This document shows, piece by piece, positions 21,370-57,205 of a stretch of DNA of 64,000 bases (its first letter is position 1; every line of letters starts with the position of its first letter). The stretch is taken from contig NZ_CP042808.1 in NCBI RefSeq assembly GCF_004014775.2, forward strand, positions 2,012,001 to 2,076,000, in the 5' to 3' direction. Below the pieces are notes generated by a model. The model worked only from the letters and a program-made list of their open reading frames with translations, had not been told where the DNA came from and did not search any database. A program made the position numbers and the translations under genes. Source of the stretch: Acetobacter oryzoeni (lineage in GTDB: Bacteria > Pseudomonadota > Alphaproteobacteria > Acetobacterales > Acetobacteraceae).

Positions 21370-21445
21370 GCCCAAGTAGCTCAGTTGGTAGAGCATGCGA
21401 CTGAAAATCGCAGTGTCGGTGGTTCGATCCCGCCCTTGGGCACCA
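21370..21445 (+). tRNA. tRNA-Phe(GAA), attachment site of the element
   Basis: The acceptor arms GCCCAAG and CTTGGGC pair fully. The D-arm AGCTCAGTTGGTAGAGC and the T-arm GGTTCGATCC are present, and the loop CTGAAAA gives anticodon GAA. CCA is encoded at 21443-21445. The last 16 bases are repeated at 32296, marking this gene as the integration target; the tRNA stays intact. Confidence 0.97.
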
Positions 21446-22577
21446 TATCATATTTTTTCCCTTTAATTACAATGCGTTGCGGGCTGTTTTTGCCCCACTC
21501 TGCATTTTTCGCTTCATTGTGGGACATTTCTTGTCCCTGCATACGTGCGAACGCACTCGCTGCCAGTCGCTTCTGATCTGCTGCAAGCGTGTAGCGTTGA
21601 ACCTCTTTCAATGACCGGTGGCCTGTTACAGCCGCGATCTCATGCGCTGTGCATCCGATCTCTGCCATCCGCACCGCTGCTGCCTTACGCAAGCCATGCG
21701 CTGCGCAATGCGGTAGCCCTGCTTCGTTGCACCATTGGCGAAACCGATTCCCAAAACCTTCTGGCGTGTATGGGTTGCCATAGGTGCTTTGGATGAATGT
21801 GTTTCCCTCTAACGCGCCTGGTGTTGCCTCTATGATTTTCTTGAGTTCAGGAAAGATTGGCAGCGTGAGTGTGACAGGCTTCTTCTTGATGTTCTTTTCT
21901 TGGGTGAAGGTGATGTATCCATTCCGCACATCCTTGATGCCCATCTGCACCACATCACCACGGCGCTGCCCTGTGTAAAGCAGCATGGCAAAAGCCAATC
22001 TGGCAGGCGTTCCAATCGGGTGGGTATTTTCGAACTGCTCGATTTCTTTTTCTGACCAGCTATGAAAACCCGTTCCTGATGATGGAATATAAGGCACGTC
22101 CTTGGCTGGATTTTTGCTTAACGCGCCAATCTGAACACCATATGCAAAAAGCTGGCGTAAGGCTTTGAGAATGCCGTTGCTTGCCGCTACTTTGCCCTGC
22201 TTGCTATCTCGCAACGCCAGAACATGCCGTGGCTGGATGGTAGCAACCTGAAACTTGCCGCATGTTTCACACAGACCATCCAGAACGCCATGCCGGACAT
22301 ACTGGGTGCGACCATCCAGCCGTGCAAATATGGCCGAACCAAAATAGCTTATGCACAGATCCCGAAAACTGCCCGGAATGACGACTTCTCTGGTTGGCGT
22401 GGCTGGCAGGATTTCGCCTGCCATTGCCTTGCGGTATTCTTCATCAAATTCCGGCGTTCCGGGTATCTGATGCAGCCGGACTTTTCTATGGCCCGGACGG
22501 CGCAAATACACACGCACATTGCCGTGCCGGTCTATATCTTCTGACACGTATTTATAGCGCCGCTTCACCTGTATCAT
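21381..22577 (-). CDS. Tyrosine recombinase / integrase
   Basis: This 398-residue phage-type integrase has an N-terminal arm-binding part, a SAM-like core-binding part and the catalytic domain with Arg in LYTGQRRGD, HGLRKAA, and GHRSLKEVQRYT containing the nucleophilic Tyr. It starts at ATG 22577, overlapping the AlpA-like gene by 4 bp. The 3' end runs into the antisense strand of tRNA-Phe, so the last residues (GGIEPPTLRFSVACSTN) come from host tRNA sequence. In the excised circle the frame would instead end GGISTPNKNK with a TAG now at 32268-32270. Confidence 0.93.
   Translation of the reverse strand: MIQVKRRYKYVSEDIDRHGNVRVYLRRPGHRKVRLHQIPGTPEFDEEYRKAMAGEILPATPTREVVIPGSFRDLCISYFGSAIFARLDGRTQYVRHGVLDGLCETCGKFQVATIQPRHVLALRDSKQGKVAASNGILKALRQLFAYGVQIGALSKNPAKDVPYIPSSGTGFHSWSEKEIEQFENTHPIGTPARLAFAMLLYTGQRRGDVVQMGIKDVRNGYITFTQEKNIKKKPVTLTLPIFPELKKIIEATPGALEGNTFIQSTYGNPYTPEGFGNRFRQWCNEAGLPHCAAHGLRKAAAVRMAEIGCTAHEIAAVTGHRSLKEVQRYTLAADQKRLAASAFARMQGQEMSHNEAKNAEWGKNSPQRIVIKGKKYDMVPKGGIEPPTLRFSVACSTN
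21430..21446. repeat. attL core (17 bp)
   Basis: CCGCCCTTGGGCACCAT, the 3' end of tRNA-Phe plus one base, is repeated exactly at 32296-32312. It contains the short palindrome GCCC-TT-GGGC. Together with the adjacent integrase this identifies the left end of the element. Confidence 0.9.
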
Positions 22578-22852
22578 TTTTTAACGATTGCATCCCATTC
22601 GTTAGGTGCATCCTGCATTTCCGACTGGGCAGAATATTGCAGCTCTGTGCCGGTCATTCTTGCCGCCGCTGCTACTAAAGCAGGCCGGAACCAGATTGAT
22701 ATTGATCCTATACGCGCCGGTTTAGGGACAAGTCCCTGCTCAACCATTTTGTCAAAAGTGCTTTCGCTTACATCAAAAAATGCCGATGCAGCTTTACGGC
22801 GCAAAACAATAGGCAAAAGACCGGGCGGCAGATGGTCATAACGCGATTTCAC
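22574..22852 (-). CDS. AlpA/excisionase-like small DNA-binding protein
   Basis: This 92-residue protein has a winged-helix or MerR-like N-terminal half: LRRKAASAFFDVSESTFDKMVEQGLVPKPARIG resembles the first helix-turn-helix of AlpA or Xis proteins, with SIWFRPAL as the wing and next helix. Such proteins control integrase expression or direct excision; in Gram-negative PICIs AlpA is a key regulator. It starts at GTG 22852, overlapping the portal stop by 4 bp (GTGA), and its own stop overlaps the integrase start (ATGA). It is therefore at the end of the capsid operon, not divergent from it. Confidence 0.75.
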   Translation of the reverse strand: MKSRYDHLPPGLLPIVLRRKAASAFFDVSESTFDKMVEQGLVPKPARIGSISIWFRPALVAAAARMTGTELQYSAQSEMQDAPNEWDAIVKK

Positions 22853-23973
22853 GCTGCATCCTCCTGCTTGGGATTATATCCTTCCTGCTCACGAATTTCG
22901 TTCACGGTCAGAATTTGATTCTGTATGGCAATGCCATAGGACTGCCAGCGGGTTGCGTAGTCACCACGCATCAGACTGGACAGGTCTATGTGCATTTCGA
23001 ACGGGCTGGATGCACCAAACACTGAACGCTTGAATTCAGCTTCAATCTTGCGTGCCCAAGGCAGCAACGTATTGGTGGCAAACCACAAGCTGGCCTGTGT
23101 TGCGTTCGTGAATGTGTTGTTGCTGTAATCCTGCACAATCGGTGGCGGCACACCATAGACTCGGCACAGTTCCTGAACGCTGAACTTGCGGCTTTCCAAT
23201 GCTTCGGCATCTTCTGGGCTGATACCGATAGATTGCCACTTCATGCCATTGGACATAACCATGACCTGACGTGCATTGCCGGTGCCAGAAAACTTGTTGC
23301 GGACTTCCTGCTTCAATTCATCCAGTGCGGCTGGTGCAGGCCGTGCATTTTCGAATGTGATGATGCCGCTTGGTGTGGCTTGGTTCTGCCACATGTTCAG
23401 GCTGTAATCTTGCAAGGCAGCAGCAGCCGTATGCACATCTCTTGCGCGGCTTAACCTGCTACGTCCCATCAGCCCATCATCTGAACGGTCGCGCAGGTGG
23501 AAAACCTCATCATCCAGATAGGTGCGTGTGATACCTTGCCATGCAATGACCGTGTAGCGCAGGCGACCTGATGCCAGCCTATCCACCTGCACGCATTGCC
23601 ACGGCACAGGTGTTAATCCCGTAGGACGGCCTGCACCATCATACTGGATGGTCAGCAGCGCGTTGCCTGTCAGCAGAACACTACCCATGAGCCATTCCAC
23701 AAGATCGGGCCATGTCTGATTCTCATTGGGCTGGCGTATCAGCCGCGCCACTGGATGGTTTGGGGCTTCTGTTCTGGTATCGCCAGATGTGTTGTAAACA
23801 TACACATCCAGCGAACCAATGCCGCTGCCAATCGCGTTGACGCAAGCCAGAACAGTTGACAGTCCTTCTGGATTGCCGGGACCGCGTGGAAACCACATGC
23901 TGGGCAAAACAGGTTCTGCTGATACCGTATCGCGCTTTTCTGTGCGGCCAAAAAGGCGATCAAGAAAGCTCAT
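22849..23973 (-). CDS. Phage portal protein, HK97 family
   Basis: This 374-residue protein is expected to form the dodecameric ring at one capsid vertex through which DNA enters and tails attach. Family-like segments include STVLACVNAIGSGIGSLDVYVY, PNENQTWPDLVEWLMGSVLLTGNAL, QELCRVYGVPPPIVQDY and NTLLPWARKIEAEF. It is slightly short for the family (often about 400) but complete at both ends. The ATG at 23973 overlaps the protease stop by one base (TGATG), showing tight coupling. Confidence 0.92.
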   Translation of the reverse strand: MSFLDRLFGRTEKRDTVSAEPVLPSMWFPRGPGNPEGLSTVLACVNAIGSGIGSLDVYVYNTSGDTRTEAPNHPVARLIRQPNENQTWPDLVEWLMGSVLLTGNALLTIQYDGAGRPTGLTPVPWQCVQVDRLASGRLRYTVIAWQGITRTYLDDEVFHLRDRSDDGLMGRSRLSRARDVHTAAAALQDYSLNMWQNQATPSGIITFENARPAPAALDELKQEVRNKFSGTGNARQVMVMSNGMKWQSIGISPEDAEALESRKFSVQELCRVYGVPPPIVQDYSNNTFTNATQASLWFATNTLLPWARKIEAEFKRSVFGASSPFEMHIDLSSLMRGDYATRWQSYGIAIQNQILTVNEIREQEGYNPKQEDAA

Positions 23974-24506
23974 CAGATTGTCTCCAAGAAGCGCAGCCGT
24001 TGTGCAGGTGTCAGACCAACCAGACGGCTACGTGCTGATATGGTGGTATCGGCATAGGCAGGAAACGCCTGCACAACGCTGATCTCCACCAGATCGACTG
24101 CACGCAGTTCCCGTTGATCTGACGCGGGCCACGCTTCATCTTTGACGCGGAAACCAAAAGACATGCCGCCCAGATCACGCCGCTCGGCCAAAGCCAGAAC
24201 ATCATGACCAAGCTGGGTGTCTGGGATTGCCAGTTCAAAATGCAGCCCGCGCGTGTCTTCCGCCAGTTTGAGCGAACCAGACGCCGTGCGTGCCAGCAGC
24301 CTAGTTGGGTCATGATCTACCAAGGCAAGAATATCCGGGTTGCTCTGGAGCGTTTGTGAAAACGCCCCAGAACGGATGGTTTCTGAAAAACTGCCAATGC
24401 GAGCTGATGCCCCAAACACTGCGGCATAGCCTTCCAGCTTGCGACCGGCGGCGCGAAATTCTACGCCACACGAACGCCTTTCCACGCTGCCAGTCGCGCC
24501 CGTCAT
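23973..24506 (-). CDS. HK97-type prohead protease (S78 family)
   Basis: The protein has about 177 residues from ATG 24506, which overlaps the capsid stop by 4 bp (ATGA); a longer frame to 24572 is less likely. The N-terminal fold with EGYAAVFG, the His in LVDHDPTRLLARTASGSL and the Ser in LGGMSFGF match the catalytic site of HK97-like prohead proteases, which remove the capsid delta domain during maturation. Its presence suggests the element makes a mature capsid of its own. Confidence 0.9.
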   Translation of the reverse strand: MTGATGSVERRSCGVEFRAAGRKLEGYAAVFGASARIGSFSETIRSGAFSQTLQSNPDILALVDHDPTRLLARTASGSLKLAEDTRGLHFELAIPDTQLGHDVLALAERRDLGGMSFGFRVKDEAWPASDQRELRAVDLVEISVVQAFPAYADTTISARSRLVGLTPAQRLRFLETI

Positions 24507-25795
24507 TGCGTAATACCTGTCAGGGTCAGCAATGTTTGTGGCCGCACGACCAGAACGTCTGCACGCATCCATGCCACGAAGCCAATCTGCCCGTTTTCTG
24601 CATACAGTTCGTTCAACACGCTAATCTGCAAGCTGGTGCGCATACCAACGTAGACCTGGGAAAAATCGCCCATGACAATGCTGCTGGCGTTATTGTCCGT
24701 GCCCTGATTTACCGGAACGCTTGTGGTTGTGAGGCGCGGAATAGTGGAAACATCAGCCGGGGCAGATAATGGGTTGCCGTTGGCATCCTTGAAACCACGA
24801 ATTGCACGGTTGGTGCGCGGCGCCATAATCATGGCAGACACCTTGCCTGCATTCACGTTTTCCAGATCAAGCACGGCATCCAAAACCGGGTCCCAGTTTG
24901 TTAACTTGCCGTTGAGAGCTGATGTCTGGATGTTTGGCGTGTTGACGATGCCAAGCGGGCTGTTGGCGGTGCCATCACCAAACAGAATGGCCTGATCTAA
25001 TGCCAAAGCACCAGATGCAGCAAAGGCGGAACGGATAATGCTATCCACATTCTGCCCATCTTCCAGCAGTTCGCGGCTGATCTTGCAGCGCAATGCCCAT
25101 GACTTGGCGGTCATTTTCACCTGGTCAAAGGTGCTTTCATCTTCAACAATGGCGGCATTTTCTGCCCGCCATGCACCTACTGGTGTTTTGGTCAGCCGCC
25201 CGAATGTAAGAGACTGGGAACCCATCGGCACAGTGCGGCAACCAGCACAGAAAGAAACCGTTGCTGCTCGCAGTTCATCAAGAATACCGGCAGCGACTGG
25301 CACAGGCACAAGCGCACCGCCTGAACCAATGCTGCTTTCTGACATGACGCGGCGTTCAAGTTCAGTCTGCGGGCCACGATAAAGCGCACGCAAGAAGCCA
25401 CCAAGGCCGAGTTCTTGTGCGCGGTTTTCTGTTGCAGGCAGGAATGATGCAAGACTATGCCGCGCCTCCAAAACCGGAACAGTCTGACCTTCCTGTGTGC
25501 GCAAGAACAGGCCGTCAAAATTCTCTGGCGTCCTGGCTGGTTCATCGAACCCGGCAACACGGATTTCTGGCTGCACTGGCGCACCACCGCCTATGCGATC
25601 GGCTGGCGCTGTTCTGTCCAGTTCATCAATTTGCGCCTGACGCGCCATACGGCTTTCCAAACCGGCCAATTCAGTGGACAGTTCTGTCCAGCGGGTCTGT
25701 GCTTCGGTCGGTAATGCATCTGGATGTGCAGTATTCAAGGCACGCAGTTCAGTTGCAATTTCTGCTTTACGTGCCTGCATTTCGCGGAGTGTCAT
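24503..25795 (-). CDS. Major capsid protein, HK97 fold
   Basis: This 430-residue protein has an N-terminal helical, charged delta-like domain (MTLREMQARKAEIATELRAL, residues 1 to roughly 100), which should serve as scaffold and be cleaved by the neighbouring protease. The HK97-fold body follows, with segments such as GGALVPVPVAAGILDELR, TKTPVGAWRAENA, FGDGTANSPLGIVN and DFSQVYVGMRTSL. The C-terminus is the usual VLVVRPQTLLTLTGI. The gene directly follows a 50-residue frame (TAAATG) and precedes the protease. No separate scaffold gene is needed or seen. Confidence 0.93.
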   Translation of the reverse strand: MTLREMQARKAEIATELRALNTAHPDALPTEAQTRWTELSTELAGLESRMARQAQIDELDRTAPADRIGGGAPVQPEIRVAGFDEPARTPENFDGLFLRTQEGQTVPVLEARHSLASFLPATENRAQELGLGGFLRALYRGPQTELERRVMSESSIGSGGALVPVPVAAGILDELRAATVSFCAGCRTVPMGSQSLTFGRLTKTPVGAWRAENAAIVEDESTFDQVKMTAKSWALRCKISRELLEDGQNVDSIIRSAFAASGALALDQAILFGDGTANSPLGIVNTPNIQTSALNGKLTNWDPVLDAVLDLENVNAGKVSAMIMAPRTNRAIRGFKDANGNPLSAPADVSTIPRLTTTSVPVNQGTDNNASSIVMGDFSQVYVGMRTSLQISVLNELYAENGQIGFVAWMRADVLVVRPQTLLTLTGITQ

Positions 25796-25948
25796 TTACA
25801 GCCCTTCCATTTCATGAACAAAGCCAAATTCGTTGACTTCTTCACGATAAAATTCCTCAAAAACCCGGCGTGGGTTCATGTCTTCCACAAGTTTGGATAC
25901 GAGGCTGCCAATGGTTTGAAATGGCGAAAGTTCTTTATTTTCACTCAT
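25796..25948 (-). CDS. Small acidic protein (50 aa) just before the capsid gene
   Basis: A short frame from ATG 25948 encodes 50 residues, starting MSENKELSPFQTIGSLVSKL and ending FVHEMEGL. Its TAA touches the capsid ATG (TAAATG), as expected for coupled genes. It is acidic and probably helical; I know no family for it. Possible roles are a capsid-associated or size-determining factor, but that is only a guess from position. A weak ribosome site (GTGGA) lies upstream. Confidence 0.5.
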   Translation of the reverse strand: MSENKELSPFQTIGSLVSKLVEDMNPRRVFEEFYREEVNEFGFVHEMEGL

Positions 25949-25962
25949 TGGATGAATTCCAC

Positions 25963-25991
25963 TTGTACTTCTATTATGCCTCGCCTATAAC
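25963..25991 (+). promoter_or_regulatory. Candidate promoter on the plus strand inside the element
   Basis: TTGTAC (25963-25968) and TATAAC (25986-25991) are spaced by 17 bp on the plus strand, against the direction of all element genes. With the terminator at 26034-26081 they would frame a transcript of about 84 nt. Confidence 0.4.
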
Positions 25992-25997
25992 TTGGGA

Positions 25998-26081
25998 GGC
26001 ATTGCGGGACGGTCATTCTCGTAATCGGATAAGAGCGTTGCAGGGTGGTGGTTTCCAGTTCAGCCCCTGCAACGCTTTTTT
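25998..26081 (+). ncRNA. Candidate small RNA in the satellite, about 84 nt
   Basis: No open frame of note lies here. A sigma70-like site upstream would start transcription near 25998. The end is a textbook intrinsic terminator: AGCGTTGCAGGG (26034-26045) and CCCTGCAACGCT (26065-26076) pair fully, loop of 19 nt, then T6. No plus-strand protein gene exists for this terminator to serve. A short regulatory RNA is the simplest reading; a leftover terminator is the alternative. Confidence 0.4.
26034..26081 (+). terminator. Intrinsic terminator on the plus strand
   Basis: A 12-bp perfect stem is followed by a T-run on the plus strand only; the minus-strand exit (CTTATCC) has no T-run. It stands just after the stop (26084) of the minus-strand gene downstream of the AT-rich patch. 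Confidence 0.75.
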
Positions 26082-26083
26082 AT

Positions 26084-26980
26084 TTATAAAACTGACCGCA
26101 TAAAGGCTATGCGTGTTGTTGCGCTAAGATTTATTACTATTTTTACGGAAGCATTTTCTATAACTGACAATTCTGCTTGAATGTCTTCTTTGTCTTTATT
26201 CTTGAATATATCTTTGAAAATAAGATCAGCTCCTCTTTCCCATCCTCGGATTTGGAATGCAAATATCAGTTCATCTTCTTCCAATCTATTAACAGCAACA
26301 TAATCACCATTTATAATTGTAAGTATTACATCTCCTTTCCCAGCCTTATATAAATCCCATTCATCACCATTTTCCATAATACTCATTACGCAATTAAATG
26401 TAATGTCATCGGAAGACTTGAAATTTAATTCATCAATACCAATATCATTGGTTTCTTTGCAAATAATATCCTTATAGTGCGGTAATTTTATTAAATTAGC
26501 ATCAAGAAGCAATCTATCTGCTTCTTTTCTATGCTCAGGCCACGGCATAGGGTCAATAATTGCCTTAGCCCAGCCACGCAAAGCAACATTCTCCAAAAAT
26601 GTAATTACAAATTTTGCCGCTTGTGTTGGTCCAATGCCAATGCTTGCGATAGCTCCTACAAATGCAATGCGCCGCAAACCATTTACAGATACAAGCCGCT
26701 TTTTGCCGTGTCCCTTAGCTACCTGATCTTCTGGAAACAATTCTGGCATTCTGTTCATAAGCATAACAATATTAGCTTCCGTCATACCAGATGCCTGTGC
26801 CAACTGACGTATATCAAATTGTATCATTTTCCACTCATGCTCAGAAATTAATATGCCCATGAGAGATATATCACGCAGGTTATAACTTGCGTCAATACTA
26901 TTTTGCACTGGCAATGGAAAAACAGGGAATGGAACTGGTGGCCGTTCTGGTTTTGGCTCGCAGGGATGACGGAAAAACAT
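26084..26980 (-). CDS. Unknown protein with HTH-like N-terminal part, possible satellite cargo
   Basis: The protein has 298 residues from ATG 26980, which follows the previous stop by 2 bp and has GGGAG at -8; a longer frame to 27055 overlaps the previous gene and is less likely. The segment IRQLAQASGMTEANIVMLMNR followed by LRRIAFVGAIASIGIGPTQAAK resembles a MerR-like DNA-binding domain. The C-terminal half is acidic and mixed, with no known motif. The gene is clearly richer in A and T, and in Asn, Ile and Lys codons, than the capsid and terminase genes, so it was probably acquired separately. Confidence 0.6.
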   Translation of the reverse strand: MFFRHPCEPKPERPPVPFPVFPLPVQNSIDASYNLRDISLMGILISEHEWKMIQFDIRQLAQASGMTEANIVMLMNRMPELFPEDQVAKGHGKKRLVSVNGLRRIAFVGAIASIGIGPTQAAKFVITFLENVALRGWAKAIIDPMPWPEHRKEADRLLLDANLIKLPHYKDIICKETNDIGIDELNFKSSDDITFNCVMSIMENGDEWDLYKAGKGDVILTIINGDYVAVNRLEEDELIFAFQIRGWERGADLIFKDIFKNKDKEDIQAELSVIENASVKIVINLSATTRIAFMRSVL

Positions 26981-26982
26981 CT

Positions 26983-27441
26983 TTATGCTCCCTGCATTTT
27001 CATAATTTCGGGAGCCAAATCTTGTAGCAGAGAAAGTAGAAGTGTTTCTTCCCACAAGCCACTATGTGCACTATATGCAATGTGTTTGCCTGCCCATACA
27101 GCAAGAGCACGAGCTTTTGCTTTTATGCCTTCCGGCGTAACGGCACGCCAAAGAACAATGCTCTCTACAACCTCATCATTTCGGTCATAAATAGAGTTAA
27201 CAATGACATCTCGCCTGTCATCATCATCAATTCTATTTACGCCATCATAGAAAGATTGTGCGAATTGGTTATCTTTGATGAAGCGTTCACACAGAGCAAT
27301 GCCAACAGCGTCTTTCCCTTCCGGCTTCGCGGCAGGCGCGGCGGTCAGGGTTTCTGGTTTTGCCAACCCGGCGGCGGCAATGCCTGCCAGTGCGGCGGCT
27401 CCAAATGCGGGGAAAATGTCACGACGAGACAATGAGCGCAT
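26983..27441 (-). CDS. Putative exported protein with twin-arginine-like signal
   Basis: The protein has about 152 residues from ATG 27441; an upstream ATG at 27489 adds 16 residues that would mask the signal. The start MRSLSRRDIFPAFGAAALAGIAAAGLA is a clear SRRxxF-type Tat signal followed by an Ala/Pro-rich linker and a small helical domain ending LAPEIMKMQGA. It has no Cys pair or catalytic motif I can name. The downstream unknown gene follows after 2 bp, so the two form a pair inserted between terminase and capsid genes. Confidence 0.6.
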   Translation of the reverse strand: MRSLSRRDIFPAFGAAALAGIAAAGLAKPETLTAAPAAKPEGKDAVGIALCERFIKDNQFAQSFYDGVNRIDDDDRRDVIVNSIYDRNDEVVESIVLWRAVTPEGIKAKARALAVWAGKHIAYSAHSGLWEETLLLSLLQDLAPEIMKMQGA

Positions 27442-27685
27442 GACGTGCGACTCCTTCAGCTTTGATTGCCGAAGGCACCTACTGATCAAAGCGCGCGCCT
27501 CCGGGGGTTGATCACCTGGCTGAAGTCAGGCCGAGGGTTTTTAGGCTTGCGCCCTGGACAGCGCCCACGCCCCCGGAGAAATTCTATTTGCGCGGATACC
27601 ACGTTACGTGCAGTCACCGCTTCAGCTACAAGGAGTGATCAAACTCCGCTGGTGAACCTGCCAAAACCCGATTCCTGTGTCAACA
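27442..27685. promoter_or_regulatory. Structured non-coding stretch between terL and the exported-protein gene
   Basis: No convincing gene is present. The stretch holds three TGATCA palindromes (27483, 27509, 27636), the last inside GGAGTGATCAAACTCC, and long-range arms CTCCGGGGG (27499-27507) and CCCCCGGAG (27570-27578). It may contain the promoter and operators of the exported-protein/capsid operon, or a packaging site; neither can be shown. Confidence 0.35.
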
Positions 27686-29320
27686 TCACAACGCGATCAC
27701 ATCGAAAAATAGTTCTTCCTCGGCGGGCTCACTTGCAGCCAAGCCTACGGCCACCACACTAGCAACCAGTGGGTCAATACGGCCTCTGGCACGCTGCTTA
27801 CTCAACTTGCGATTGCCCGCCGGGTCAGTATCCAAAGCCGCGTTCGATACAGCCCAGCGCAGCAATGGATTGCCGCCGTGTTGCAGCGTGCCTTGAAGAA
27901 CCACGGTTTCAAAAGCCGTTATGGCTGGTGACTGATCTTTGAAGCCCATGCCCACGGGTGACAACGGCAGGCTTATGCCCTCACGGTCTGCAACGGCCTC
28001 CAAGTCTTTCAGGTTCCACCTATCCAGCCCGATAGCAACCACATCCAGCCCTTCTATGGCTTGCGCAACCCACATCAGAAGCCATGCACGATCAATGGCA
28101 CGCCCTGGTATTGCTTCAATCAGACCAGCCGAAAGCCATTCCCGGTATGGTGCGTGATCTTCAGATTGCTTCACGTCCACCAGCTCACTTGGCAAGAATG
28201 CCTTGACGGTCAGTTTTCCGGTTTCCGGCCAATAGAAGCTAAAGGCCGTCAAGTCAGATGCGCCTGACGCCAGATCAAGCCCACAATAACACGGCCCTGC
28301 TGCTTCGGCCTCTCCCGCGCAGGCGTCCCAATCATCAGGACGCAAAAAACGCACGTCTGATGTCACCGGCTGGTTCAGGGTGTAAGCTCGAAAAGCTGCT
28401 TCCTGTGACGGCACGCGCATGGCCTGCATTGCCTGGGAGCGTATGTCCTCCACGCTGCGGAATGTGCCCAGCGCAGGGTTTGCCATGCGCCACGTTGCCT
28501 CAACCCACGGGTCTGCATCCATAGGCGCGGACCAGACAAAGGACTTGAACGTCCGATCTGGGAAGGTGCCATCTGCCACGCTGGCACCGTAACGTAAAAG
28601 CTCCTCAAGTGGGTTATCTGCATCTGGTGATCTGGTGGAAATGCCCAGCAGCAGGCTTTCCCTGTGCGCACCGCCGCCGGTCTTAAGTGCGTCAAACAGA
28701 TCACGGTCGCGCCACTGGGCAACCTCATCCGCAATCGCAAAGGTTGGTGAAAGGCCGTGTGCCTTACGAGCATCTGCTGACAGTGCCTTATAGACCGAGC
28801 CGGTCACGGCATCCTCTACGGTTTTATTGAAGGCCCGCACCACCAGACGCGCTGCAAGCTGGGGCTGTTCCAAGGCAAAGGCCACCATCTCATCAAACAC
28901 AATGGACGCCTGCCCGCGATCTGCGGCAGCACTCAACACCTGCCCACGTTTTACAGCTTCCGGCCCGCACAAATGGGCAAGCGCCAAAGCTGATGCCAGC
29001 CCTGTTTTACCGTTCTTCCTGCCCATGCTGATAACGCCGGTGCGCACAAAGCGCAGGCCGTTTTCATCGGTCTCATACAAGGCGCGGATGATATCTTTCT
29101 GCCACTCATCCAGCCGCATGGGCTGGCCTGCCAGAGCGCCACTGGTAATTGTCAGGCGTTCTATCCAGCAGATCAGCCTCTCTGCCCGCGTTTCTCCTAC
29201 CAGTGGAAGTTCACCGGTGCTTGCAACTTGGTCCCCACCGGGTGCATCACCAAAGAGCGGCAATGGTGCCGGGGTCTTTGTCTTTAAAACCGGTTTGGCA
29301 CCGGGTCCACGAAGGCCCAT
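27686..29320 (-). CDS. Phage terminase large subunit
   Basis: This 544-residue DNA-packaging motor has a Walker A-like segment VISMGRKNGKTGLASALALA, a Walker B FAIADEVAQW and a C-terminal RNase H-like nuclease with GLDLASGASDLTAF and LDRWNLKDL. It should cut and pump DNA into the prohead through the portal. The N-terminus MGLRGPGAKPVLK resembles the basic start common in P27-type small terminases. No separate small terminase gene was found in the element, so recognition may depend on this protein, the HNH protein or an unrecognised gene. Confidence 0.92.
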   Translation of the reverse strand: MGLRGPGAKPVLKTKTPAPLPLFGDAPGGDQVASTGELPLVGETRAERLICWIERLTITSGALAGQPMRLDEWQKDIIRALYETDENGLRFVRTGVISMGRKNGKTGLASALALAHLCGPEAVKRGQVLSAAADRGQASIVFDEMVAFALEQPQLAARLVVRAFNKTVEDAVTGSVYKALSADARKAHGLSPTFAIADEVAQWRDRDLFDALKTGGGAHRESLLLGISTRSPDADNPLEELLRYGASVADGTFPDRTFKSFVWSAPMDADPWVEATWRMANPALGTFRSVEDIRSQAMQAMRVPSQEAAFRAYTLNQPVTSDVRFLRPDDWDACAGEAEAAGPCYCGLDLASGASDLTAFSFYWPETGKLTVKAFLPSELVDVKQSEDHAPYREWLSAGLIEAIPGRAIDRAWLLMWVAQAIEGLDVVAIGLDRWNLKDLEAVADREGISLPLSPVGMGFKDQSPAITAFETVVLQGTLQHGGNPLLRWAVSNAALDTDPAGNRKLSKQRARGRIDPLVASVVAVGLAASEPAEEELFFDVIAL

Positions 29321-29396
29321 TTTTTAAAATCCCAATTTTGAACTAACTATTTTTTGACCCCCAGCACGGTCGAGAACCCCAAGCCCTGAGCGATTT

Positions 29397-29726
29397 TTAA
29401 GCCACATGAAAGCCGCGCCAAGGGTCAAGGTTTTCCAGCATGTCAGCCCATCCGCTAAGGCCAAAGCTGGTTGCGCCCACACCTTCGGTTTGGTCTTGGG
29501 TGATAGACCGATCACGCGCTGCCTGATGGTAGATGGCTGCTGCAATGTCCATCACTGTGCGGGTGATGGTCTGCGGCATCGGGTCAAGGGTGGTCACATC
29601 CTGCCCGCAATAATCGGATGCAATGCCCCATGCCTGATTTAAAGCCATTGCAACACGATTGGCATCTACGGTTTCAGATTGGGCGGTCAGATCAGCAATA
29701 AAAGTTGATGTCAGGTCTGTAGTCAT
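29397..29726 (-). CDS. Head-tail connector, gp6-like
   Basis: This 109-residue small protein starts at ATG 29726, overlapping the HNH stop by 4 bp (ATGA). The pattern of a short helical start, ALNQAWGIASDYCGQDV, a helix with TVMDIAAAIYHQAARDR and an end WADMLENLDPWRGF is that of gp6/adaptor proteins, which build the ring below the portal and prepare for tail joining. The assignment is by shape, not by a strict motif. In a satellite it would be the interface to helper tails. Confidence 0.65.
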   Translation of the reverse strand: MTTDLTSTFIADLTAQSETVDANRVAMALNQAWGIASDYCGQDVTTLDPMPQTITRTVMDIAAAIYHQAARDRSITQDQTEGVGATSFGLSGWADMLENLDPWRGFHVA

Positions 29727-29995
29727 GAATTCCACCAGTGGTTTGGGTCTACGGGCTGACCATTCGTGTTGCAGCCCTTGAGGTATGGTTCATTGCCGTG
29801 TCTGCGCATGTTGTGGTGCCGAATGCATAGACCACGCAGGTTTTCCAATGCGTCTGCACCGCCTTTGGAGCGCGGTATGATGTGGTCAGCCACTACAGCA
29901 CGGGCATTGCAGCCGGGTGTTGTGCAAATCCGGTCACGTTTCAGGCACGCAGCACGCAAGCGTTTCCAGAACGTGGTTTTGTAAAAGCTCGTCAT
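29723..29995 (-). CDS. HNH endonuclease
   Basis: This 90-residue protein contains C-T-T-P-G-C, VADHIIPRSKGGADALENLRGLCIRHHNMRR: the two Cys of the zinc-binding HNH variant, the catalytic His in DH, Asn in the middle and the final His pair. In HK97-like phages an HNH protein next to terminase genes is required for cos cleavage and packaging. The ATG at 29995 lies about 23 bp from the large inverted repeat at 30018-30138. Confidence 0.88.
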   Translation of the reverse strand: MTSFYKTTFWKRLRAACLKRDRICTTPGCNARAVVADHIIPRSKGGADALENLRGLCIRHHNMRRHGNEPYLKGCNTNGQPVDPNHWWNS

Positions 29996-30017
29996 TAGGC
30001 TGCTTTCTGCACCATGT

Positions 30018-30138
30018 AGGGACGCAGTGACGCACAGGGACGCACTTTTCTATAGAAGGGTATGTCCGTGCGTAGGTGTGCGCGCACACGCATGGGCGCT
30101 CTATAAGAAAGTGCGTCCCTGTGCGTCACTGCGTCCCT
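30018..30138. repeat. Iteron-rich 31-bp inverted repeat, candidate replication origin
   Basis: Two perfect 31-bp arms (30018-30048 and 30108-30138) flank a 59-bp spacer. Each arm has three copies of GACGCA (30021, 30029, 30039; complements at 30112, 30122, 30130). The spacer holds the palindromes TTCTATAGAA (30048-30057) and GTGTGCGCGCACAC (30076-30089). It lies 14 bp after the primase-helicase stop. In SaPIs the origin is made of iterons next to rep/pri, so an origin is the leading reading; a packaging site or a terminator is possible. Confidence 0.6.
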
Positions 30139-30152
30139 GTTTGATGTGTAAT

Positions 30153-32180
30153 TCATACCATTTTTTCCCACAATCGAACGCCACCAGTCCCGCGAACAGT
30201 GCCACGTTTCCAGCCAAGGCGTTCCATAATTTTGGCAATTCGGCGTTGGTCTGCTGTGCCTATCTTCTTGTTTTCAAAGAATAAGCAGTCATGAGCCACC
30301 TGATGGATGGTGACTTTATTTCGGCCAATCAAATGGTTTGCAATCAAGCCTTCCCATTCATCCTGCTCAAAACGTGCTTCTTGCTCTGGTTTGATGAAAA
30401 ACTTCTCAAAACTGGCATCTGGCCACCATTGCGCACCATGCCGAAACGCATGAACAGCCTCGGCAAGTATCTGGTCACGATCAGCCGCCAGATCATCAAT
30501 GGAAATTTCGCCTATCTTCACGGGCCAATATCGGCGTCCGCCTGTCTCATCAGACAGGTAGACGGATTTATTGGTGGTTCCGACAAACAGACATTGCCTT
30601 GGCTCTATCACCTCACACCGGCCGAATGGTGGCCTGAAGCGTTCTGTTGTTCGTGTGATGAAATGCTTGAGCATTTCGTTTTCGGCTTTGCCTAAGGCTG
30701 AAAGCTCTGCAATTTCCAGCAGCCATTTGCCGCGCAGATGCATTTGCACATCTTTGCCGGTTTTCAGGTCTGGCATACCATCAGAATACCATTCACCACC
30801 TAGAATGGCGCAGGCTGTAGACTTTTTTGCACCCTGTTCGCCTTCCAGCACCATCATGTAGTCTGCCTTGCATCCGGGTTTGAAGATGCGAGCAACCATT
30901 GCAATCAGGAACATGCGGCCAATACCGGCATGGTATTCTGACATTTCCGCACCAAGGTAATCTGTCAGCCACGTATCAAGTCTGGGTATTTTGTCCCATT
31001 GCAGGCCGTTCAGATAATCACGCACAGGATGGTAGGCGCGTTCTACGGCTACACATCTGACAGCTTGGTGCATGATTTCGCTGCTAACACGGCGCAAACC
31101 GGCAATCTGCAAGCGTTCCTGAACGTGCGTTACATCTTCATCCGTGATCGGACGTGGCGTGAACGGCTCCGCCTGCGGGCCGAGTGGTTGTGCCAAGTAT
31201 GGCAGGCAGACCATCTGGTTGTATGCGAATTTCCCTGAATATGCAGGGTCTGCACGCAAAGCCAGAAGCACATTTGCTACGTTGGGAATCGGCTGCCCGC
31301 GATCATCACGCAAGCACATTTCCAGCCAATCTGGTGAGAGAATTTCCTTGGGTTCCACATCGGCAGCATCATAATCTGGCGCTGCTTCTGCAAGTGCTGC
31401 CAGTTCTTGCGCACCGTGTCCGGCCTCTAACCAGTCGAATACATCACCTTTTGCTGGCAAATCTGGCAATGTGAGGATGCGCACACGCTTGGCCTTGCCA
31501 TGCAATGCTTTGGCGACTCGGTTTGCATGATCTTTGCCGGGTGCATCATTGTCCGGCAGGATGACTACATCTGCACCGCGCAAGCTGCTGGAATAATCTG
31601 CACGCCATTTTCCTGCACCGCCGGGACTACATGTTGCCGCAAAGCCATATTCAGCCATGCGTAAGGCTGATTTTTCGCCTTCTACAACATAGATCGGCTG
31701 ACCTGCCTGCATGGCTTGCTGGATTTCCGGCAAACGATACAAGACACGCCGCACGCCTTTGGTTTGCCAAGACCATTTGCCGCCTTCCAGTGGCCTGCGC
31801 TGGCGAAAGTCCTTCGGCTCCATCCGGCAGACCTGAAAAAGCAGTTCACCATCCTCGCTCACATAATCGTAAGTCTGGACAATCTGGCCTTTCTGGGTCG
31901 GTTTGCGTTCTAATTTTTCAAGGTATCCGTGGTCTTGCAGCCACTTAATGGCTTCTGCCTTGGGCACACGCTGTTCACGCATGACCAAAGCAACAACACC
32001 GCCACCTTCGCCGGTTTCATTGTCAAACCACGTTCCCTTGCTCACATCGAGACAGAACGAACCACGACTTCCCCAGCGCCATTCTGTTTTTATGGACTGG
32101 CTTTTGTTGGGTTCGCCAAGCAAGCGCCGCGCAACATCGCTAGCACACGCTTTGAAGGCAGTATTCCCGGCGTCACTCAT
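30153..32180 (-). CDS. Toprim primase / VapE-type helicase (Pri-Rep)
   Basis: The protein has 675 residues from ATG 32180; the frame continues to 32219 but MSDAGNTAF is the better start. The N-terminal half carries a Toprim-like domain with YVVEGEKSALRM and VVILPDNDAPGKDHA. The C-terminal half is a virulence-associated E (VapE) ATPase with LEGEQGAKKSTACAILGG as Walker A and EIAELSALGKAENEMLKHF after it. Such fusions replicate phage satellites and small prophages. It is the first gene of the element from the right end, and the iteron repeat directly follows it. Confidence 0.9.
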   Translation of the reverse strand: MSDAGNTAFKACASDVARRLLGEPNKSQSIKTEWRWGSRGSFCLDVSKGTWFDNETGEGGGVVALVMREQRVPKAEAIKWLQDHGYLEKLERKPTQKGQIVQTYDYVSEDGELLFQVCRMEPKDFRQRRPLEGGKWSWQTKGVRRVLYRLPEIQQAMQAGQPIYVVEGEKSALRMAEYGFAATCSPGGAGKWRADYSSSLRGADVVILPDNDAPGKDHANRVAKALHGKAKRVRILTLPDLPAKGDVFDWLEAGHGAQELAALAEAAPDYDAADVEPKEILSPDWLEMCLRDDRGQPIPNVANVLLALRADPAYSGKFAYNQMVCLPYLAQPLGPQAEPFTPRPITDEDVTHVQERLQIAGLRRVSSEIMHQAVRCVAVERAYHPVRDYLNGLQWDKIPRLDTWLTDYLGAEMSEYHAGIGRMFLIAMVARIFKPGCKADYMMVLEGEQGAKKSTACAILGGEWYSDGMPDLKTGKDVQMHLRGKWLLEIAELSALGKAENEMLKHFITRTTERFRPPFGRCEVIEPRQCLFVGTTNKSVYLSDETGGRRYWPVKIGEISIDDLAADRDQILAEAVHAFRHGAQWWPDASFEKFFIKPEQEARFEQDEWEGLIANHLIGRNKVTIHQVAHDCLFFENKKIGTADQRRIAKIMERLGWKRGTVRGTGGVRLWEKMV

Positions 32181-32295
32181 AGAGTCGCACCGTGCCGAAT
32201 TTGTGGGACAGAACCCCAAAAAAACGCTATAAAAAAGTGGCAGAGGCTTTTACCCACCGCGCTGTAACTATTTGTTTTTATTGGGGGTAGAAATG

Positions 32296-32312
32296 CCGCC
32301 CTTGGGCACCAT
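32296..32312. repeat. attR core (17 bp)
   Basis: An exact second copy of CCGCCCTTGGGCACCAT found at the end of tRNA-Phe. It marks the right end of the element. Confidence 0.9.
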
Positions 32313-54908: not shown

Positions 54909-55328
54909 CTATTTCGGCTTTTCCGTAATGAAATCGATATGGCTGATGCCCGCTTCCTGACACGTCGCCACCAGACGGCCCACACTCTCATAGCGTGTGG
55001 TCACATCTCCGCGGATCTGGATCTGCGGCTGGGGCTTCTGCACCGCCGCCTTCTCCAGCCGGGCCAGAAGATCGGCCCGGTCCCTGATCGGCGTTTCATC
55101 CCAGAAGGTCTGACCATCCGCCGTGACTGCCAAAACCACATTGCTCAGCTTGGTCTGGGTTGGCTGGTTCATGTCCTTGGGCAGCTGCACCTTCACGGTA
55201 TGTGTCGCCACCGGAATGGTGATCAGAAAGATGATCAGCAGCACCAGCATCACATCCACAAGCGGTGTGGTGTTGATGGCGGAGACGACGTCGTCTTCCC
55301 CGCCGCTATCGCCAACCTGCATGCCCAT
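54909..55328 (-). CDS. exbD: ExbD/TolR biopolymer transport protein (first copy)
   Basis: This 139-residue protein has the membrane segment with NTTPLVDVMLVLLIIFLITIPVA and the essential Asp, then a periplasmic part (VVLAVTADGQTFWDETPI). It works with ExbB as the proton channel for TonB. The start MGMQVGDSGG parallels MGMNVGSEST of the second copy, showing they arose by duplication. Gap of 29 bp from the exbB stop. Confidence 0.93.
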   Translation of the reverse strand: MGMQVGDSGGEDDVVSAINTTPLVDVMLVLLIIFLITIPVATHTVKVQLPKDMNQPTQTKLSNVVLAVTADGQTFWDETPIRDRADLLARLEKAAVQKPQPQIQIRGDVTTRYESVGRLVATCQEAGISHIDFITEKPK

Positions 55329-55357
55329 AAGCGTTCTCCTTGCCTTGACCTGAGCGA

Positions 55358-56392
55358 TTAGCCGACGCGGTTGGAAACCGTGGCCGTGGTGGGGGAGTTA
55401 TCCGGGCGCACCACAATCTGATCCACCGCAGCCCCATGACGCACGCCACCGATGAGGATGGACTGCAGGTCAGCAGCAAAGTCACGCACCAGGTCCATGG
55501 CCGTCTTGTTGCGGCGCACCAGCAGGTTGTAGCCCAGAACGGCCGGCACCGCGGTGGCCAGACCAATGGCCGTCATGATCAGGGATTCACCCACGGGCCC
55601 TGCCACCTTGTCGATGGAAGCCTGACCGGCAATGCCGATGGCTGTCAGCGCGTGGTAGATCCCCCACACCGTGCCGAACAGACCGATGAACGGAGAGGTG
55701 GAACCCACGGTGCCCAGAAAGGCCAGACCCTTTTGCAGGCTGTTCTGGATGTTGTTGACCGCGCGCTGGATGGACATGCCCGTCCAGCTATGCAGGTCAA
55801 TGCTTTCCTGCATCGTGCCTTCATGGTGTTCGGCAGCCACAATACCGGTATCGGCGATGTAGCGGAACGGGGATGTGGAAGTGAGTGCGGAAGCACCTTC
55901 CTGAATGCTGTGCTTGGTCCAGAAGCTTTTGGTGGCTTCCTTGGCGGCAGCGAACAGGCGGGCCTGCTCGATGAACTTGGTGATCATGATATACCATGTG
56001 CCCAGGGACATGGTGAGCATGATCAGCAGCACGCCGCGGGCAATGATATCCCCATTGGACCACAGAGCACCCAGACCGTAGGGGTTGGCTTCTTCCTTGG
56101 TGTCTGCTGCAGGTGGCGCCTGTTCGGCCGGGGCGCTGGCAGCAGGTGCAGGCGCTTCTGGCGCCGCAGGGGCTGGGGCTGCATCCGGTGTGGCGGCAGG
56201 TGCCGGTGCGGAAGATGGCGCCGCATCAGGAGCCGGGGCCGTGGCTGCGGGTGCGGGTGCTGCGGGCGCGGCATCCTGCGCAAAAGCCGCAACTGGGGCT
56301 GCAGTGCTCATCAGCAGCGCCAGAGCCGGAGCCGCAAGACCTGACACAAAAGAACGGGGCAGTCTGGTCATCTTCCTCATAATCCTCATCAT
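55358..56392 (-). CDS. exbB: ExbB/TolQ-family motor protein with Ala-Pro-rich leader
   Basis: This 344-residue protein begins with a signal-like segment (LPRSFVSGLAAPALALLMSTAAPVAAFAQ), followed by about 70 residues of Ala/Pro-rich linker expected in the periplasm. The TolQ/ExbB core follows with three membrane segments, including FLGTVGSTSPFIGLFGTVWGIYHAL and GPVGESLIMTAIGLATAVPAVLGYN. It forms the proton-driven pentamer with ExbD. Long AP-rich leaders are seen in other alphaproteobacterial ExbB proteins. Confidence 0.93.
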   Translation of the reverse strand: MMRIMRKMTRLPRSFVSGLAAPALALLMSTAAPVAAFAQDAAPAAPAPAATAPAPDAAPSSAPAPAATPDAAPAPAAPEAPAPAASAPAEQAPPAADTKEEANPYGLGALWSNGDIIARGVLLIMLTMSLGTWYIMITKFIEQARLFAAAKEATKSFWTKHSIQEGASALTSTSPFRYIADTGIVAAEHHEGTMQESIDLHSWTGMSIQRAVNNIQNSLQKGLAFLGTVGSTSPFIGLFGTVWGIYHALTAIGIAGQASIDKVAGPVGESLIMTAIGLATAVPAVLGYNLLVRRNKTAMDLVRDFAADLQSILIGGVRHGAAVDQIVVRPDNSPTTATVSNRVG

Positions 56393-56461
56393 CAGGGCCC
56401 GATCCGGCAGGGTATGGCCATTATGGGCCGGGCAATCCGTTATTGTGTTCGTAAGCTGATC

Positions 56462-57205
56462 TTAGTCATCCAGCTTGAAGTGGATGACATAGACCTTGTG
56501 CAGTTCCTTCACCGGCACACCATTGCGCATGGCCGGGCGATAACGGGCCTTGTGCACGTAATCCAACGCCGCCTGGGCAAAGGCCTGACCACCAGAGACC
56601 GACTGCACCTGGCAGTTGCTGGTCATGCCCGTGGGTTCCACATCACATGCAACCGTCACGCGGCCCTCGATGTTGTCTTCCTCCATTTCTGGGGGATAGA
56701 CCGGCTGCACATGGTTAAGCGGTGCCGTTCCGGCCGTGGTGTCTGGCGCATCGGATGACGGTGCGCTGGCTGCGGGTTCGGTGGCGGCAGGTGGCGCCTT
56801 GGCCGTTTTGGTCTGTGGGGGTGCCGGATGTTTGGGGGGCGCCTTGGCCACATGCTTGATGGGCGGCTTGGGCGGCGGTGGCACCTTGATCTTGGGCGGT
56901 GGAATGAACGGCGGCGGCGGCTCTGCCATCACCGGCGGTGGCGGCGGCGGTGGAGGTGGCGGCGGTGGCGGCTGAGGTGGTGGCAGCACTTCCGTCTGAA
57001 TGGGCGGGTGTTCAACGGGCACGCTCGCCTTCGTGCCCATCCCATACATCAGCCCCCACACACCAGCTCCATGCAAAAGAAGAACCGCTATAAGCGCACC
57101 AGCCCCAACCGCACCACCAGCGCGAAGAACATAACGCTCCTTCCCCTCTGTTCGTTGAGCAGCGTCACTTTCCAGCTTTTCGGAGTGTTCTGAAATATTC
57201 TGCAT
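56462..57205 (-). CDS. tonB: TonB energy transducer
   Basis: The protein has about 247 residues from ATG 57205 with GAGAG upstream; a start at 57271 adds 22 residues and is possible. It has a cytoplasmic start, one membrane segment (GGAVGAGALIAVLLLHGAGVW), a long Pro-rich spacer with a run of 13 prolines and Lys-Pro repeats, and the C-terminal TonB domain from QPVYPPEMEEDNIEGRVTV to YRPAMRNGVPV. It links the ExbBD motor to outer-membrane receptors. The GC-rich codon use of tonB-exbBDD stands out against the flanks. Confidence 0.93.
   Translation of the reverse strand: MQNISEHSEKLESDAAQRTEGKERYVLRAGGAVGAGALIAVLLLHGAGVWGLMYGMGTKASVPVEHPPIQTEVLPPPQPPPPPPPPPPPPPVMAEPPPPFIPPPKIKVPPPPKPPIKHVAKAPPKHPAPPQTKTAKAPPAATEPAASAPSSDAPDTTAGTAPLNHVQPVYPPEMEEDNIEGRVTVACDVEPTGMTSNCQVQSVSGGQAFAQAALDYVHKARYRPAMRNGVPVKELHKVYVIHFKLDD

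What the first reader, a model, noticed from the sequence alone, without database searches (positions are those of the whole stretch)
21430..32312. A tailless, capsid-forming phage satellite integrated in tRNA-Phe
The 10.9-kb element has int, AlpA-like, portal, protease, capsid, connector, HNH, TerL and a Toprim-VapE primase, but no tail, lysis or repressor gene. Published capsid-forming PICIs make their own heads and use helper tails. All frames are intact and overlapping, which speaks against a decayed prophage. An acetic acid bacterial member would extend this class to a new host group, as far as I know.
Basis: partly seen in the sequence, partly recalled or inferred. Interest (0 to 1): 0.85.

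Follow-up and report, generated by a model that had tools for sequence, protein, structure and literature searches.

The report
Tail-less capsid-forming satellite in Acetobacter
A 10.9-kb piece of mobile DNA in a vinegar bacterium carries genes to copy itself and to build and fill a virus head but none recognised for a tail or for lysis, and it belongs to a large, similarly sized family in alphaproteobacteria that probably borrows tails from other viruses.

Summary
Window 21430-32312 is a 10,866-bp element in tRNA-Phe with a 17-bp repeat; two congeners show the empty site. One strand encodes VapE primase, HNH, gp6-like adaptor, HK97-type TerL, accessory genes, MCP, S78 protease, portal, AlpA and integrase. 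Head genes are full length and under purifying selection. A portal-profile scan gave 76 loci, 69 alphaproteobacterial by title. Order is MCP>protease>portal in 65 of 65 with all three found, opposite to eight tailed phages but like an E. coli EDL933 block that I take to be EcCIEDL933. 33 repeat-bounded elements average 10.5 kb, s.d. 0.47. An inverted iteron array follows the primase, much as described for PICI origins. Best reading: a capsid-forming satellite that makes its own heads and takes tails and lysis from a helper; transfer is untested. New variant of a known kind.

The parts
21370..21445 (+). tRNA-Phe (gaa), attachment target, left intact
   Evidence: ARAGORN
21430..21446 (.). att core copy on the tRNA side (CCGCCCTTGGGCACCAT)
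   Evidence: empty sites
32296..32312 (.). att core copy at the far end
   Evidence: empty sites
21381..22577 (-). tyrosine integrase; its end reads antisense through the tRNA
   Evidence: PF00589 2.3e-21; coordinates
22574..22852 (-). AlpA-like small regulator or excisionase
   Evidence: phrog_25900 5.6e-6, phrog_9834 0.0052; no Pfam match
22849..23973 (-). portal protein
   Evidence: PF04860 3.9e-90
23973..24572 (-). prohead serine protease (S78)
   Evidence: PF04586 1.3e-42
24503..25795 (-). HK97-fold major capsid protein
   Evidence: PF05065 2.9e-43
26084..26860 (-). orf323, probable MerR-type regulator upstream of the capsid gene
   Evidence: profile of 7 kin (A3) aligns with the commonest protein of this slot (A6), probability 96.8, E 2e-10; 17 of 38 A6 members match MerR_1 at 0.01 or better. 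Against: the window protein itself has no Pfam match up to E 1 and no PHROG match; best two PDB matches are unrelated
26983..27441 (-). orf168, small protein with a twin-arginine-like signal (by eye); accessory, role unknown
   Evidence: 14 ORFs in 13 loci, cluster 3; no Pfam match up to E 1
27686..29320 (-). terminase large subunit, HK97 type, with an N-terminal MGLRGPGAKP extension
   Evidence: PF20441 5.4e-32; 39% identity to HK633; extension
29397..29726 (-). orf112, gp6-like head-tail adaptor
   Evidence: Phage_connect_1 in 6 of 9 family members; PHROG head-tail adaptor families in all 9 at E up to 1, best 4.7e-6
29723..29995 (-). HNH endonuclease (packaging, inferred)
   Evidence: clusters with ORFs of which L079 2.1e-7 and L037 3.2e-8 match PF01844; not scanned itself
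30018..30138 (.). inverted iteron array, likely replication origin: two 39-nt arms with three iterons each, 43 nt between
30153..32219 (-). Toprim and VapE-type primase/helicase
   Evidence: PF05272 2e-75; Toprim_2 0.0027, below its cut-off

Best explanation
The element is an intact capsid-forming phage satellite (cf-PICI-like). Shown from sequence: it sits in tRNA-Phe between att repeats beside a tyrosine integrase, carries a primase followed by a two-armed iteron array, and encodes an HK97-type head and packaging set with one head-tail adaptor, but no recognised tail or lysis gene; these genes are under purifying selection and the layout is kept in a large family. Inferred: a helper phage induces it (through AlpA and/or the MerR-type protein), it excises, replicates from its own origin, builds small heads sized for about 10.5 kb, packages its DNA with its own TerL and HNH, and leaves with helper tails through helper lysis.
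For: Gene content; att repeat and two empty sites; dN/dS 0 to 0.33 for window against L045-L048 in portal, protease, MCP, TerL, HNH and adaptor; MCP>protease>portal in 65 of 65 genome loci with all three found (11 of 76 incomplete) and 81 of 82 viral loci (2 of 84 incomplete; the odd one has protease and portal in one ORF after MCP; near-copies not removed), while the same profiles put portal before MCP in 8 of 8 tailed phage records; 33 elements of 9,018-11,262 bp, mean 10,497, s.d. 469, 32 of them assigned to 11 tRNA types; adaptor and head-closure genes next to portal in some relatives; iteron arrays in 13 of 71 regions, 0 of 71 shuffles, close to the PICI origin layout of PMC6092414 (passages); tailed-type portals form one side of a branch, 100/99, 15 rows, with the EDL933 portal on the satellite side; A. 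farinalis L048 keeps the head genes with another integrase in tRNA-Gly.
Against: No induction, particle or transfer data. No separate TerS and no head-closure gene recognised in the window. 6 of 32 related elements lack TerL and HNH, and one of these (L072, Rhizobium) has a tape-measure-like ORF (PF06791 2.3e-15). No helper seen in the own genome: one PF04860 portal, the element's own, no sheath, one more terminase-like ORF. Kinship with the EDL933 block is partial: its portal scores below two tailed phages on the family profile (324 against 386 and 374 bits) and is no more identical to the window's (31% against 33-34%), its MCP is not closer than those of tailed phages, and its TerL falls elsewhere.
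Confidence: 0.87

Rival explanations
1. Decayed prophage: a tailed phage that lost tail and lysis genes by deletion and is now dying.
For: Tail and lysis genes are missing; 6 of 32 relatives lack TerL and HNH.
Against: Full-length frames and low dN/dS across seven relatives (AlpA not found in L048, primase not in the L033 contig); narrow size range in 11 tRNA types; one head order; no near tailed kin: all 1,783 phage records with a portal match are under 60% identity, the 25 best listed at 35.5% or less.
Confidence: 0.05
2. A self-sufficient tail-less virus: the head itself, or an unknown entry protein, delivers the DNA without a helper tail.
For: Tail-less dsDNA phages of acetic acid bacteria exist (Gluconobacter phage GC1, a tectivirus, PMC5795452, start of abstract seen in the listings); orf168 and its counterparts between TerL and MCP are uncharacterised.
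Against: The head is HK97-type with portal and gp6-like adaptor, and some relatives add a head-closure protein, parts that join tails in tailed phages; no lysis gene recognised.
Confidence: 0.05
3. A domesticated head module that serves the host, such as a gene-transfer-agent-like particle or a defence device.
For: The element holds the only PF04860 portal of its genome; one relative carries an SspD-like gene (L034, 7.9e-14).
Against: Integrase, AlpA, att repeats, origin-like array, patchy presence (5 of 49 genomes of the genus, own included, with portal at 79% or more), change of integrase and site.
Confidence: 0.03

Closest known systems
cf-PICI of the EcCIEDL933 type (block at 1680.3-1695.5 kb of E. 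coli EDL933; that this is EcCIEDL933 is recalled)
   Same: Integrase, MCP>protease>portal order, adaptor, HNH, TerL, no tail or lysis gene annotated in the block; its portal lies on the satellite side of the branch from tailed portals; its protease is the best match to the family profile among the comparators (142 against at most 99 bits)
   Different: 15.2 kb between a 21-bp repeat; head genes first, then closure, connector, HNH, TerS, TerL. The Acetobacter element runs packaging first, then head, int last, no separate TerS, 10.9 kb. MCP and TerL do not group with EDL933's
Gram-negative PICIs (PMC6092414, passages)
   Same: Specific att site, one-strand transcription, alpA or merR regulator, primase followed directly by two iteron sets
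   Different: The element adds its own head genes; the iterons flank a G+C-rich centre (67%) with short A+T boxes at its edges, instead of an A+T-rich region; int ends the block
HK97-type tailed phages (HK633, Fostie)
   Same: TerL 39% identical to HK633; HK97-fold capsid; gp6-like adaptor; HNH beside the terminase in Fostie
   Different: They run TerS-TerL-portal-protease-MCP-connectors-tail; here MCP-protease-portal and no tail
MulchRoom and MiniFlayer satellites of Streptomyces (PMC10690885, passages)
   Same: Satellites with their own head and packaging genes
   Different: They lack key replication genes and one does not integrate; the paper reports no significant homology to cf-PICIs

Membership tests
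cf-PICI (features as in PMC10690885, passages) | Own MCP, head protease, portal and head-tail connectors | tested here: met
   only one connector recognised in the window
[quoted passage not shown]
   TerL and HNH present; no separate TerS recognised; family TerLs carry an MGxRGPG-type N-terminal extension (69 of 74 distinct) that might replace it (inference)
cf-PICI (features as in PMC10690885, passages) | Depends on a helper for tails: no tail genes of its own | tested here: met
   for the window; among 143 accessory ORFs of 32 related elements one tape-measure match; the PHROG table shows only 25 of 103 families
cf-PICI | Forms particles with own capsid and helper tail | not testable with these tools
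   needs induction and microscopy
cf-PICI | Common ancestry of head genes with a known cf-PICI | tested here: inconclusive
   Portal tree and protease score agree; the AU test does not tell whether the EDL933 row lies inside or at the base of the satellite side (p 0.477) and long branches meet there; portal score, MCP and TerL do not point to EDL933
PICI (features as in PMC6092414, passages) | Specific attachment site | tested here: met
PICI (features as in PMC6092414, passages) | One-strand transcription with alpA or merR regulator (Gram-negative type) | tested here: met
   MerR-type orf323 by profile comparison
PICI (features as in PMC6092414, passages) | Origin just 3' of the initiator gene: two iteron sets flanking an A+T-rich region | tested here: inconclusive
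   Two iteron sets in place; the centre is 67% G+C with short A+T boxes
PICI (features as in PMC6092414, passages) | Phage interference functions | not tested
   No PADLOC match for orf323, orf168 or orf112; interference genes were not otherwise sought
PICI (features as in PMC6092414, passages) | Phage-dependent induction and specific packaging | not testable with these tools
   experiment needed

The most novel reading that the evidence does not exclude
A separate, large radiation of capsid-forming satellites in Alphaproteobacteria, built on a fixed 10-11 kb plan (replicon and origin, HNH, terminase without separate TerS, accessory slot with a MerR-type protein, reversed head cassette, integrase), whose narrow size range reflects a dedicated small capsid, and which has exchanged replication, integration and terminase modules while keeping MCP-protease-portal.
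Probability: 0.5. Interest if true: 0.7.

Novelty: new variant of a known kind. Interest (0 to 1): 0.6.

Why it matters
If right, alphaproteobacteria, from vinegar bacteria to rhizobia and sphingomonads, host a widespread class of satellites that carry head machinery but depend on other phages' tails. The narrow 10.5-kb size gives a testable link between genome length and capsid size. Iterons that change with their element offer a system for asking how PICI-type primases choose their origins. Acetobacter has inducible phages with contractile tails and an integrase-based vector (PMC8566455: sections 7 and 8 and passages seen), so tail borrowing could be tested outside the enterobacteria.

Tried and rejected
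Decayed prophage: rejected on full-length frames, dN/dS, size range and order. 'No internal stops' is by construction, since ORFs were cut at stops; the informative part is that lengths agree (portal 374 in window, L045-L048 and L033; TerL 544 in seven of eight rows). A resident helper: portal, sheath and terminase families searched in the own genome; the ORF list of 39.7 kb around the second terminase was looked at by eye only. This does not exclude other tail types. Element on plasmids: 465 records with a portal match, all under 60% identity. Isolated phages of the family: no record at 60% or more for portal, MCP or TerL. Defence cargo in the window: no PADLOC match for orf323, orf168 or orf112. 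A published account in acetic acid bacteria: 'satellite' occurs 0 times in the main text of PMC9379143, PMC8566455 and PMC13028821 (sections 7 and 8 of PMC8566455 read); the rows listed showed none (these list 20 of 188, 12 of 12, 3 of 3, 6 of 6, 12 of 13, 12 of 50, 10 of 636 and 12 of 12 papers). Subscription and non-CC-BY papers are not covered. Profiles against solved structures: nothing significant for orf112; for orf323 the best two matches are a designed repeat protein and PcfF, with SoxR and CueR at E 0.7-1.6. Structure prediction could not be run. TerL of L100 falls outside the family, which otherwise forms one group with support of only 53, and its place beside HK97-type TerL has support 22. 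L115 joins the EDL933 row on long branches. Single contigs titled as other phyla may be misplaced MAG contigs; not checked.
Full report
Observation. The block 21381-32312 has its genes on the minus strand: from the right, VapE-type primase, HNH, orf112, TerL, orf168, orf323, a 50-codon ORF, MCP, S78 protease, portal, AlpA-like, integrase. The ends are a 17-bp exact repeat, one copy at the 3' end of tRNA-Phe, so the element is 10,866 bp. Two genomes of the same genus, G152 and G174, have the tRNA followed at once by sequence like that right of the far repeat. In G176 the tRNA copy and a second copy of the repeat lie on different contigs, so something else may sit there. The genus is Acetobacter by inference: the contig of G179 has the length of the A. 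pomorum LHT 2458 contig that carries the 99% relative.

Relatives. A first scan of viral contigs with the portal gave 15 loci, on contigs of 4.6-12.6 kb. A portal profile gave 76 loci in one genome each of 84,980 species (some genomes give two) and 80 kept of 236 in viral contigs, the longest contig 22.4 kb. By record title 69 of the 76 are Alphaproteobacteria; the other seven are three Desulfovibrio and single contigs titled Nitrosovibrio, Phycisphaerales, Clostridia and Solirubrobacterales, several of them MAGs. In the genus 5 of 49 genomes, own included, have a portal at 79% or more; 10 others only at 34% or less. In a family sample 23 of 150 genomes had a portal match at 1e-10: nine at 44% identity or more, 14 at 37% or less.

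Order and size. Local profiles built from the window proteins were run on ORFs of 40 aa or more in 189 loci. MCP>protease>portal holds in 65 of 65 genome loci with all three found (11 of 76 incomplete), in 15 of 15 of the first viral scan and in 66 of 67 of the second (2 of 69 incomplete); the exception, L122, has protease and portal in one ORF after MCP. As a control, the same profiles put TerL, then portal, then MCP in all eight phage records fetched, and MCP, protease, portal in the EDL933 block. For lengths I kept 32 genome loci with a direct repeat of at least 16 bp at or beside a tRNA (L111: tRNA-like repeat, no tRNA called), plus the window: 9,018-11,262 bp, median 10,607, mean 10,497, s.d. 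469. Left out were viral loci, two genome loci with 13-bp repeats (L074 10,976; L090 11,474) and all without a repeat. The search reached 13.5 kb upstream of the integrase end and began about 6 kb from it, so much longer or shorter elements would be missed; the lengths do not pile up at either limit. 32 of the 33 use 11 tRNA types. 26 of the 32 have TerL, HNH, MCP, protease, portal and int; L061, L062, L067, L072, L087 and L111 lack TerL and HNH.

No tail. Of 181 candidate accessory ORFs in the 32 elements I scanned the 143 on the plus strand (75 aa or more; 38 minus-strand ORFs left out). Pfam: replication families, MerR_1 (7), Phage_connect_1 (5), other helix-turn-helix families, and single hits to Terminase_4 and TMP_2. 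PHROGs: the 25 commonest of 103 families are replication, adaptor or unknown; 78 are not shown. The tape-measure hit is L072 of Rhizobium sp. Root274, an element without TerL. Between portal and int, 14 ORFs form a gp6-like cluster (example L179, 4.1e-9; includes sphingomonads L085 and L095) and four a head-closure cluster (example L178, 3.6e-15). So such elements stop at the neck.

Selection. Window proteins were compared with seven relatives (AlpA not found in L048, primase not in the L033 contig). For window against A. syzygii L046 dN/dS is: portal 0.044, MCP 0.062, TerL 0.066, protease 0.144, primase 0.110, adaptor 0.174. Synonymous differences are high (pS 0.47-0.71), so values are rough. 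Against A. pomorum L045, int and portal differ at pS 0.04-0.06 but TerL and MCP at 0.15-0.18, which points to recombination.

Origin. After the primase stop lie two 39-nt arms, 95% complementary, 43 nt apart, each holding three iterons of 8-10 nt. In relatives the layout is kept while the word changes in nearly all copies together (AGTGACGCA in L046, GGTGACGC in L045, ATGACAGC in L049). Such arrays scored 20 or more in 13 of 71 regions and in none of 71 single-base shuffles; 11 of the 13 are among 25 loci with a VapE-type primase just upstream (that 25 includes near-copies skipped). The other 58 regions, many with other replication genes, did not reach that score. [quoted passage not shown] Here the centre is 67% G+C with short A+T boxes at its edges.

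Regulator. The slot between TerL and MCP most often holds one protein family (44 ORFs in 41 of 91 loci). Of 38 members scanned (three near-copies and three short or unclear ORFs left out) 17 match MerR_1. The family of orf323 aligns with it over 89 columns, probability 96.8, E 2e-10. Whether it represses or activates is open.

Packaging. TerL is 39% identical to HK633. 69 of 74 distinct full-length family TerLs start with a GxRG[PR]-type stretch, two more come close, three do not have it; HK633 and EDL933 TerL lack it. That it does the work of TerS is my inference; its likeness to P27-type TerS starts is recalled, and the EDL933 TerS does not show it.

Kinship with cf-PICIs. From PMC10690885 and PMC11389934 (passages) cf-PICIs carry MCP, protease, portal, connectors, TerS, TerL and HNH, depend on helpers for tails, and form three capsid radiations. 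The EDL933 block, which I take from memory to be EcCIEDL933, has int, small genes, DUF927, MCP, protease, portal, closure, connector, HNH, TerS, TerL in 15.2 kb between a 21-bp repeat. In the portal tree (64 rows, quick; 57 rows, careful, after I dropped five long tailed-type rows, L110 and Fostie) tailed-type portals are one side of a branch (99; 100/99) and the EDL933 portal is on the other. The root is unknown. Its protease scores best among comparators, but its portal scores third, MCP fifth and TerL fifth. So the elements work like cf-PICIs and may share part of the head with them; they form a branch of their own.

Mechanism. Shown: site, gene set, selection, array, order, size. Inferred: helper-triggered expression, excision, replication, small heads, own packaging, helper tails and lysis. 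AlpA activates a PICI in PMC6092414; here it lies beside int at the end of the block.

Novelty. The rows listed by my searches gave no account of satellites in Acetobacter or of this branch (see Tried and rejected). As contigs are in IMG/VR and the published cf-PICI set could not be inspected, I call it a new variant of a known kind.

Noticed in passing
L072:5126-7144 (Rhizobium sp. Root274), also L061, L062, L067, L087, L111: Six of 32 related elements keep MCP, protease, portal and int at about the same size but lack TerL and HNH; one has a tape-measure-like ORF. They may also borrow the packaging motor.
   Followed up: partly
window 26983-27441 and the TerL-MCP gap of relatives: The slot between TerL and MCP holds small proteins, some with twin-arginine-like signals, others sharing mainly an N-terminal 'LRADSxRxNP'-like stretch.
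   Followed up: partly
L034:2577-3494: An SspD-like gene (PADLOC 7.9e-14) sits between primase and HNH: possible defence cargo.
   Followed up: no
window element against L045 (A. pomorum): Mosaic divergence: int and portal nearly identical, TerL and MCP about three times more diverged at synonymous sites.
   Followed up: no
L253 and L254 (G176): Two copies of the tRNA-Phe repeat on different contigs suggest another insert at the same site; its content was not read.
   Followed up: no
G000:C1:523633-525087: A second terminase-like ORF; no phage neighbours were obvious by eye in 39.7 kb.
   Followed up: partly
window 55001-57000: A 62.5% G+C stretch between regions of about 48-51%.
   Followed up: no
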